From Patulibacter minatonensis DSM 18081 (GTDB lineage Bacteria; Actinomycetota; Thermoleophilia; Solirubrobacterales; Solirubrobacteraceae): DNA of 64,000 nt. Shown one piece after another: positions 2,466 through 4,663 of the stretch (position 1 is the stretch's first letter; every line of letters begins with the position of its first letter). The translations under genes were made by a program, and so were the position numbers. Where the stretch lies: assembly GCF_000519325.1 (NCBI RefSeq), contig NZ_KI912613.1, positions 4,534,469 to 4,598,468 of the forward strand, read 5' to 3'. The notes under the pieces are model-generated. The model was not told where the DNA came from. It ran no database searches and worked only from the letters and a program-made list of their open reading frames with translations.

Positions 2466-3821
2466 TCAGGGGGCGGCGGGCGTCATGTCCGTCGGGGTCA
2501 CGAGCGTGGCCCCCGACTCGGCGTAGCCGCTGCGCGTCGCGGCGGTGGGATCGCCGCCCGACCCGGACGCGAACGCGATGCCGCCCAGCGCCAGCAGGAT
2601 CGCGACCGCCCCGCCGGCCACGGCCACGCGCGGCTTCGTGATGCGCGGGGTCGGCCCACCGTTGCCGATCGTGCCCCACCCGCCCGGCGACGTCGCCGAC
2701 CCGTGACCGGACGCGGCGGCGTGCCCCGCGCCTCCGTGGCCCGACGCGGCGGCGCCGGCGTGCCCCGACGACGCGGACGATCCGGCGCCGGCCGTCCCGG
2801 CGTTCGCGGAGCTCGTCCCGGCGTGGCCGGCCGCGGCGGTGTTCCCGGCGGAGCCGGCGTGCCCCGCGGCCGCAGCGTGCCCCGTGGTCCCGCCGGCGTG
2901 GCCGGCACCCGACGCGGAGCCCGTCGTCCCGGCGTGCCCCGCGACCGCGTGCCCGGACGCGGTCGCGGCCACGTGGCCGGACGCCGCCGCCCCGGCGGCG
3001 GCGGACCCGCCCGAGGAGAAGATCGGCCAGCCGGAGAGGATCTGTCCCGGCAGTGCGAGCGGGTGCACGCCGAGGGCGCCCCACGGCAGCGCGAACGGCG
3101 GGACCACGGCCCCGATCCCCCGCAGGCGGCGCACGTGCGCCCGGCACCCGGGGCAGGACTCGAGGTGGGAGGCGGCGTACCGGCGTCGCTCGCCGTCCGG
3201 CGCCAGGACGCCGAGGGCGTAGGCGGTCATCAGCGACCGCTGGCTCTCGCACCAGCCGCCGGCGCCGACCTCGGCGGTGACGCCGCGGACGACCTTGGAC
3301 ACGCGGTCCATGATCTTCTCCATCCGCGGCGCCGAGACGCCCAGCGCCTCGGCGGCCTCGGGCCGGGAGTAGCCGTGGAGGTAGCAGAGGGCGGCCGCCC
3401 GGCGGTCCCGGCCGTCGAGGCGCTGGGTGAGCCCCTCGGAGAACTGCTTCAGGCGGGCGCGGTCGTCGAGGTCGCCCTCGAGGTCGGGCGCGACCCCGAG
3501 CTGGTCGAGGTCCGCGACGTCCCGCCGGCGATCGGGGTGCTGGGCGCGGTACTCGTCGACGGCACGGAAGAACGCGGCCTGGGTCAGGAACCCGGCCGGG
3601 TTCTGGACGTCCTCGCCGTCCGCGAGCTTCGCGTAGAGCGCGTGCCACGCCATGTTGTACGCAGCGTCGAGGTCCGCGGCGTCGAGCTGCACGCCCGCGG
3701 CGACCAGCCGGCGGCGGAGCGACGAGATCGTCGTCCCGCGGAGTCGCTCGTAGTCCCGGTCCATGGCCCGACGGGCACGCCGGCTCCCGCGCTCCTCGCG
3801 GGGCGGGAGGACGGTGCTCAT
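2466..3821 (-). CDS. Sigma-70-like / zinc anti-sigma / membrane-anchor fusion protein
   Basis: A 451-residue protein with a layout I do not know from a named family. Residues 20-180 look like a degenerate sigma factor: a helical region-2-like part (NMAWHALYAKLADG...NPAGFLTQAAFFRAVDEYRA) and a region-4-like helix-turn-helix (RRAAALCYLHGYSRPEAAEALGVSAPRMEKIMDRV). Residues 190-236 form an anti-sigma zinc domain with Hx3Cx2C (H219, C223, C226). Residues 270-400 are a low-complexity linker built from Gly, His, Ala, Ser and Thr (recurrent GHAG, SGHG, AAGHAG). A single membrane segment (about 407-426, AVAILLALGGIAFASG) precedes a short tail. It may therefore be a membrane-tethered sigma factor or DNA-binding regulator carrying its own redox/zinc sensor. 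ATG 3821 is chosen because the open frame further upstream has unnatural composition. It lies downstream of an ECF sigma gene on the same strand. Confidence 0.8.
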   Translation of the reverse strand: MSTVLPPREERGSRRARRAMDRDYERLRGTTISSLRRRLVAAGVQLDAADLDAAYNMAWHALYAKLADGEDVQNPAGFLTQAAFFRAVDEYRAQHPDRRRDVADLDQLGVAPDLEGDLDDRARLKQFSEGLTQRLDGRDRRAAALCYLHGYSRPEAAEALGVSAPRMEKIMDRVSKVVRGVTAEVGAGGWCESQRSLMTAYALGVLAPDGERRRYAASHLESCPGCRAHVRRLRGIGAVVPPFALPWGALGVHPLALPGQILSGWPIFSSGGSAAAGAAASGHVAATASGHAVAGHAGTTGSASGAGHAGGTTGHAAAAGHAGSAGNTAAAGHAGTSSANAGTAGAGSSASSGHAGAAASGHGGAGHAAASGHGSATSPGGWGTIGNGGPTPRITKPRVAVAGGAVAILLALGGIAFASGSGGDPTAATRSGYAESGATLVTPTDMTPAAP

Positions 3822-4087: not shown

Positions 4088-4663
4088 CTACGTGGCGAGC
4101 TCCGTGCGCATCCGGGCGAGACCGCGGCTGATCCGGCCCTTCACCGTCCCGAGCGGCATCCGGAGGCGCTCGGCGATCTCGATGTGCGTGCACCCGACGA
4201 AGAACGCGAGCTCGATGACCTCGCGCTGCTCGTACGAGAGGACGTCCAGCAGGTCGCGCGTGCGGTGGGCGTCGATCTGCCGCAGCGCCGCGACCTCCGT
4301 CGCCGTCGCCGCCGGTGCGGGCTGGCGGTCGATGGCGGTGTCGTCCCAGGACTCGCGCTCCGCGAGCCGGTTCCGGCGCCGCCGCTGGTCGACGGCGCGG
4401 TTGCGGACGATCGACAGGAGCCACGCGCGCGGCTCGCCGAGCGCGGGGTCGTAGGAGCCGGCCGACCGCCAGACCGCGATGAACGCCTCCTGGCAGACGT
4501 CGTCGGCGAGCGAGGTCCACCCGACGATCCGGCCCGCGAGCGCGTGGGCGGACACGACGTGCCGGTCGTAGAGCGCGTTGAACGCCGCGACGTCCGAGCG
4601 GGAGACGCGCTTCAGCAGCACCCGGTCGGAGACCGTCCGCAGGCTGTGGTCCGTATCGATCAT
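4088..4663 (-). CDS. ECF-type RNA polymerase sigma factor
   Basis: A 191-residue extracytoplasmic-function sigma factor that directs RNA polymerase to a small regulon. Region 2 is at about 20-90 (FNALYDRHVV...LADDVCQEAFIAVWRSAGSYDP...PRAWLLSIVRNRAVDQRRRR). Region 4 is at about 130-185 (LSYEQREVIELAFFVGCTHIEIAERLRMPLGTVKGRISRGLARMR). Region 3 is absent, as expected for ECF factors. I start it at ATG 4663 (MIDTDHSL...) because the open frame further upstream to 4849 is atypical N-terminal sequence. No separate anti-sigma gene is adjacent; the fusion protein just downstream on the same strand, with its zinc anti-sigma-like domain, is a plausible partner (inference). Confidence 0.9.
   Translation of the reverse strand: MIDTDHSLRTVSDRVLLKRVSRSDVAAFNALYDRHVVSAHALAGRIVGWTSLADDVCQEAFIAVWRSAGSYDPALGEPRAWLLSIVRNRAVDQRRRRNRLAERESWDDTAIDRQPAPAATATEVAALRQIDAHRTRDLLDVLSYEQREVIELAFFVGCTHIEIAERLRMPLGTVKGRISRGLARMRTELAT

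What the first reader, a model, noticed from the sequence alone, without database searches (positions are those of the whole stretch)
2466..3821. One-piece sigma / zinc anti-sigma / membrane protein with a Gly-His-Ala linker
A sigma-like helix-turn-helix half, an Hx3Cx2C zinc anti-sigma motif, about 130 residues of GHAG/SGHG-type repeats and a membrane helix are encoded in one frame. Sigma and anti-sigma are normally separate proteins. The His-rich linker could bind metal or act as a flexible tether, making a self-regulating membrane sigma factor.
Basis: partly seen in the sequence, partly recalled or inferred. Interest (0 to 1): 0.72.

Follow-up and report, generated by a model that had tools for sequence, protein, structure and literature searches.

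The report
Membrane-anchored sigma fused to its inhibitor
This gene of a Patulibacter-like soil bacterium encodes a gene switch (ECF sigma factor) joined in one protein to its own zinc-binding inhibitor and a membrane anchor; the layout is already known from other actinobacteria, but this copy has an unusual histidine-rich tether and has lost the outside tail and the secreted partner gene found in most of its relatives.

Summary
Window 2466-3821 (minus strand) is one open frame of 451 aa: ECF sigma regions 2 and 4 (about residues 20-184), a zinc anti-sigma (ZAS) domain with all four ligands (C191, H219, C223, C226), a ~140-residue Gly/Ala/Ser linker with 11 Gly-His pairs, one transmembrane helix (399-417) and a 34-residue tail. 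Separate profile searches, AlphaFold2 models and structure searches support both halves. It is not an assembly accident: the same genome has at least nine sigma-ZAS-TM fusions, and P0001 sits in a well-supported clade seen only in Solirubrobacterales. The kind is known: reviewed groups ECF48, ECF52, ECF53 and the characterised IutY. P0001 is not ECF52 (no carbohydrate-binding domain, different clade). The histidine linker occurs in no relative examined, so it is not a family feature. Two family traits appear undescribed: most relatives directly follow a gene for a secreted Ig-like protein, and 29 of 32 complete genes end in an 'EF' peptide. P0001 has neither, and its outside tail is the shortest seen. 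Best reading: a self-inhibited, membrane-tethered sigma released by intramembrane proteolysis, possibly without a first cut. Function is inferred, not shown.

The parts
2466..3821 (-). whole gene, 451 aa sigma / ZAS / linker / TM / short tail protein (P0001)
   Evidence: third-position GC
3522..3752 (-). sigma region 2 (about residues 24-100), core-RNAP and -10 recognition domain
   Evidence: TIGR02937 alignment over 25-174; sigma chains matched over 8-189; Pfam region-2 model itself gives no hit
3270..3473 (-). sigma region 4 (about residues 117-184), -35 recognition domain
   Evidence: Sigma70_r4_2; VIA-align Z 7-8, rmsd 1.2-2.9 to region 4 of SigL, SigD, SigK, CnrH, SigW
3102..3263 (-). ZAS zinc anti-sigma domain (residues 187-240); ligands C191, H219, C223, C226
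   Evidence: AF2 model of the domain matches RslA, RsiW and RskA
2646..3068 (-). cytoplasmic Gly/Ala/Ser-rich linker (residues 252-392)
2703..2978 (-). GHA/GHV/GHG motif stretch (residues 282-373), 11 Gly-His pairs
2571..2627 (-). single transmembrane helix (residues 399-417), preceded by PRITKPR (inside-positive)
   Evidence: hydropathy 2.37, next best separate segment about 1.1
2469..2570 (-). 34-residue extracytoplasmic tail lacking the EF motif of relatives
4088..4663 (-). separate canonical ECF sigma factor upstream, 266-bp gap; neighbour only, not found at the relatives' loci

Best explanation
P0001 is an ECF sigma factor made inactive and membrane-bound by its own C-terminal zinc anti-sigma domain. 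Shown here: sigma 2, sigma 4 and ZAS domains in one polypeptide, the ZAS domain with its zinc ligands, one TM helix, conserved sigma residues, relatives of the same order. Inferred: (1) the ZAS domain folds onto its own sigma regions, as ZAS anti-sigmas do on partner sigmas; (2) the long Gly/Ala/Ser/His linker is a slack cytoplasmic tether that lets the sigma-ZAS unit sit away from the membrane; (3) activation is by intramembrane (site-2) proteolysis at the TM helix followed by removal of the ZAS part, by analogy with IutY; (4) because only 34 residues lie outside, P0001 should be a direct site-2 substrate that needs no site-1 cut, unlike relatives with tails of about 100-200 residues. In most relatives the outside tail with its EF end, and the secreted Ig-like protein encoded just upstream, would be the sensor; P0001 has lost both.
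For: Profiles for each half on its own; fold of the sigma part and of the ZAS part, whose ten best PDB hits are all anti-sigma chains. Four zinc ligands near-invariant. In the sigma part P0001 departs at only 1 of 25 near-invariant columns, D for E at 139. At least nine sigma-ZAS-TM proteins in this genome; Solirubrobacterales-only clade of 33, SH-aLRT 98. A full-length site-2 protease homologue is encoded. In IutY, versions with about 50 or fewer periplasmic residues bypass Prc but still need RseP (PMC5411451). Truncating SCO4117 to its sigma domain gave a milder phenotype than deleting it (PMC5826349).
Against: No binding, localisation or proteolysis data. Matches to curated sigma and anti-sigma models are mostly under the curated cut-offs; Foldseek E-values are only 0.03-0.45. 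AF2 pTM 0.44 says nothing reliable about how ZAS sits on sigma. Peptidase_M50 was found in all 14 control genomes, so its presence is weak evidence. Both EF tail and Ig partner are missing here, so the family's sensor logic cannot simply be carried over.
Confidence: 0.55

Rival explanations
1. Cytoplasmic switch: the TM helix is only an anchor, and metal or redox state acting on the CHCC zinc site, with the His-rich linker as extra ligand, opens the sigma-ZAS clamp without proteolysis (as RsrA/ChrR-type ZAS proteins or sigma factors with on-board metal sensors do).
For: Complete CHCC set; 11 GH pairs in the linker, above every shuffle; almost nothing outside the membrane to sense with.
Against: His linker in no relative examined, while the zinc ligands are shared by relatives with long outside tails, so they do not explain this copy; no evidence for an ordered metal site in the linker.
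Confidence: 0.2
2. Decaying paralogue: P0001 lost its sensor tail and partner gene, and the linker is neutral low-complexity drift; it is constitutively on or off and contributes little.
For: Shortest complete tail seen, no EF motif, no Ig neighbour; low-complexity segments vary freely in the family.
Against: Frame intact with third-position GC 0.94-0.98; zinc ligands kept and sigma residues kept at 24 of 25 near-invariant columns.
Confidence: 0.12
3. The ZAS domain acts in trans on the neighbouring ECF sigma factor (4088-4663), and the fused sigma half is a decoy.
For: Adjacent on the same strand, in the usual sigma then anti-sigma order.
Against: 266-bp gap; the neighbour is not found at the relatives' loci; relatives are fusions without it; the fused sigma half keeps its conserved residues.
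Confidence: 0.08

Closest known systems
ECF52 sigma factors (SCO4117 of Streptomyces coelicolor)
   Same: Same order sigma - zinc finger - Gly/Ala/Ser linker - TM in one actinobacterial protein; putative orthologues recovered here align colinearly with the family profile.
   Different: ECF52 has a proline-rich stretch and an NPCBM carbohydrate-binding domain outside; P0001 has 34 residues there and no such domain. ECF52 lies in its own clade.
ECF48 and ECF53 groups
   Same: Reviewed as actinobacterial ECFs with C-terminal zinc-finger plus one or two TM helices, expected to be activated by proteolysis (PMC8999054).
   Different: No reference sequences were available here, so membership could not be tested.
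IutY of Pseudomonas putida (ECF243)
   Same: Sigma and membrane anti-sigma in one protein; model for release by Prc and RseP (PMC5411451).
   Different: Anti-sigma part is a periplasmic cell-surface-signalling type tied to an outer-membrane receptor, not a cytoplasmic zinc domain.
RslA (anti-SigL) and other ZAS anti-sigmas (RsiW, RskA, ChrR)
   Same: Best structural and sequence matches of the P0001 ZAS domain.
   Different: Those are separate proteins acting on a partner sigma.

Membership tests
ECF sigma factor | sigma region 2 and region 4 only | tested here: met
   TIGR02937 over 25-174, all 12 relatives match; structure matches over 8-189 (52, 53). Pfam region-2 model gives no hit; no extra sigma domains seen.
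ECF sigma factor | binds core RNAP and initiates at a specific promoter | not testable with these tools
   No experiment; two-box motif search upstream of 38 family genes gave nothing above shuffles.
ZAS (zinc) anti-sigma domain | C...Hx3Cx2C zinc ligands in a helical anti-sigma fold | tested here: met
   C191, H219, C223, C226; NF052375 in 17 of 17 (62); RslA E 3e-4 (60); Foldseek top ten all anti-sigma chains (76).
ZAS (zinc) anti-sigma domain | binds zinc and inhibits a sigma factor | not testable with these tools
   needs purified protein
ECF52 | sigma, zinc finger and TM in one chain | tested here: met
ECF52 | extracytoplasmic proline-rich stretch and carbohydrate-binding domain | tested here: not met
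   only 34 residues after the TM; no such Pfam hit
ECF52 | groups with ECF52 in the sigma tree | tested here: not met
   P0001 in a separate starred clade of 33 rows; ECF52 orthologues form their own starred clade (quick tree, ECF52 branch is long)
ECF48 / ECF53 | assignment by published group HMMs | not tested
   reference models not available
IutY-type hybrid (ECF243) | periplasmic anti-sigma domain of the cell-surface-signalling type | tested here: not met
   34-residue tail, no such domain among Pfam hits
[quoted passage not shown]
   no Cys in the sigma 2-4 linker; only C146, C191, C223, C226 in the protein

The most novel reading that the evidence does not exclude
Solirubrobacterales control sigma/anti-sigma fusions through an undescribed outside sensor module (a secreted Ig-like protein, encoded just upstream, that engages a C-terminal 'DGAxEF' peptide of the fusion). 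P0001 is a derivative that dropped this module, needs only the site-2 protease, and is gated from inside the cell by metal binding to its Gly-His linker.
Probability: 0.08. Interest if true: 0.7.

Novelty: new variant of a known kind. Interest (0 to 1): 0.42.

Why it matters
One-piece sigma/anti-sigma proteins are a small, little-tested class in which the inhibitor is present at exactly one copy per sigma. Here a single genome has at least nine, in an order for which I found no paper on them. The family gives natural contrasts: long tail with EF end and an Ig-like partner gene, versus P0001 with neither. That makes the question of which outside segment gates proteolysis of a tethered sigma directly testable.

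Tried and rejected
Assembly artefact: rejected (contiguous, paralogues). Frameshift-lost tail: the other minus-strand frames listed around the gene's end show no EF motif. His linker as a family trait: rejected. Clean tandem repeat: only a 2-copy array found in the linker. Conserved operon with the neighbouring ECF sigma or NAD synthase: not found in relatives. Shared two-box promoter in upstream regions: nothing above shuffles, so autoregulation is neither shown nor excluded. The broad alignment A1 could not seed search for related loci. EFGxE-stop pattern over the class: outside Solirubrobacterales no fusion was seen among the hits opened, and many hits are TGG or non-coding noise. The correlation of Ig neighbour with EF tail is not significant (17 of 17 versus 12 of 15, Fisher p 0.09). 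Published ECF group models could not be consulted; a literature search for Solirubrobacter with ECF and anti-sigma gave no paper.

Full report
What is there. The minus-strand frame 3821-2466 encodes 451 residues, here called P0001. The window is part of a 5.52-Mb single contig. The organism is a Patulibacter by GTDB kinship: the 'same genus' genome G069 has the P0001 relative on a 52,940-base contig, the length of the Patulibacter americanus DSM 16676 contig that carries the same gene.

Sigma half. Pfam and NCBIfam give sub-cut-off but consistent sigma hits. With the sigma part cut out, TIGR02937 aligns almost end to end (E 1e-6 for P0001) and matches all 12 relatives. AlphaFold2 with 17 sequences gave mean pLDDT 79. 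Foldseek and VIA-align list mainly sigma factors, region 4 fitting at 1.2-2.9 A over 51-80 residues. The low pTM (0.44) and large whole-chain rmsd mean that the relative placement of domains is not predicted.

Zinc half. C191, H219, C223 and C226 are near-invariant. All 17 family members match the anti-sigma model NF052375. The best PDB sequence match is RslA, E 3e-4, then RsiW and ChrR. The domain modelled alone (pLDDT 83) has anti-sigma chains as its ten best Foldseek hits: RslA, RsiW, RskA.

Linker, membrane helix, tail. One TM helix, 399-417, with positive residues on its inner side. Between the ZAS domain and the TM the same measure gives 160 residues in P0001, against 20-100 in the complete relatives and paralogues tabulated. 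All 11 His of the GH stretch follow Gly; no shuffle reached that. No relative, including those in the genomes of the same genus that have one, has such a linker. The tail after the TM is 34 residues, against about 100-200 in nearly all other complete genes.

Family. The own genome has at least nine sigma-ZAS-TM proteins, among them a 59 percent identical paralogue (L002). P0001 lies in a 33-row clade (SH-aLRT 98) whose members all come from Solirubrobacterales. In the order, 57 of 151 genomes have a match to the first 251 residues at E 1e-5, but many of the weaker ones are more distant fusions or ordinary ECFs. ECF52 proteins, found through their NPCBM domain in Streptomyces-like genomes, share the order of parts but form a separate, long-branched clade.

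Context in relatives. In most of the clade the fusion overlaps by about 4 bases the stop of, or lies close behind, a gene for a secreted protein of about 550 residues with an N-terminal 'YxVWSCR' segment and Ig-like and carboxypeptidase-regulatory-like domains (weak Pfam hits). In some genera a helical-looking protein of about 190 residues with no Pfam match lies between. One subclade (L012-L025) lacks the Ig-like neighbour; in several of its loci an NDP-sugar-dehydratase-like gene, named here from its sequence only, stands there instead. Complete fusion genes end in a short EF motif, consensus near 'TDGAxEF[D/G/E][L/P]R' in the Ig-linked ones, in 29 of 32 cases; chance expectation is about 0.004 per gene. 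P0001 and L002 have neither the neighbour nor the motif. In the window's genome two Ig-like genes lie elsewhere; one is followed by a membrane protein ending in 'RDGSEEFGD' in whose readable part no sigma domain was seen (a run of N interrupts it). These genes were collected by similarity to P0001, so the fractions describe this set, not the order.

Mechanism. Reviews expect ECF48/52/53 to be released by proteolysis (PMC8999054). For the sigma/anti-sigma hybrid IutY, Prc trims the periplasmic part to about 50 residues and RseP then cuts; shorter versions bypass Prc (PMC5411451). With 34 outside residues P0001 is predicted to be such a direct site-2 substrate. A site-2 protease homologue is present, as in every control genome. 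If no outside gate remains, regulation must lie in expression, in the site-2 protease, or on the cytoplasmic side (ZAS zinc, linker). That last step is open and is where the His linker could matter; nothing here shows that it does.

Verdict. Real, well-formed, and a new variant of a known kind. The fusion itself is not new to science. The specific combination in P0001, and the Ig-like partner and EF tail of its relatives, seem undescribed as far as the literature searched here shows.

Noticed in passing
L004-L017, L026, L063-L076, L079, L179-L183 (upstream of fusion genes): Secreted 'YxVWSCR' Ig-like protein gene directly upstream of, often overlapping, the sigma-ZAS-TM fusion in most of these relatives of P0001; absent at P0001 and L002.
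   Followed up: partly
C-termini of 29 of 32 complete fusions, e.g. L064, L065, L067, L070: Conserved terminal EF peptide (EFGIE, EFDLR, EFELR, REFSPG), sometimes two copies; candidate extracytoplasmic recognition motif.
   Followed up: partly
L112:2892-3638 (+), L118:206-949 (-), L164, L169: Single-TM proteins without a sigma domain that also end in EFGFE/EFGLE; in L112 and L118 they lie next to ribosomal-protein/ssb genes.
   Followed up: partly
L177 (G000:C1:1376500-1380600): In the window's genome an Ig-like gene is followed by a charged coiled-coil / TM protein ending RDGSEEFGD, no sigma domain seen; a run of N interrupts it.
   Followed up: no
L036, L038, L039 (same genome): Three related sigma-ZAS-TM paralogues carry a ~200-residue outside region that looks folded rather than low-complexity, possibly a sensor domain.
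   Followed up: no
L035, L037, L177: Runs of about 100 N sit in low-complexity tails of fusion-type genes, so the 'single-contig' genome reads as unresolved there.
   Followed up: no
L011/L072 and L013, L182, L183: Fusion genes with an Ig-like partner occur in tandem (two cassettes side by side) in family f4 genomes.
   Followed up: no
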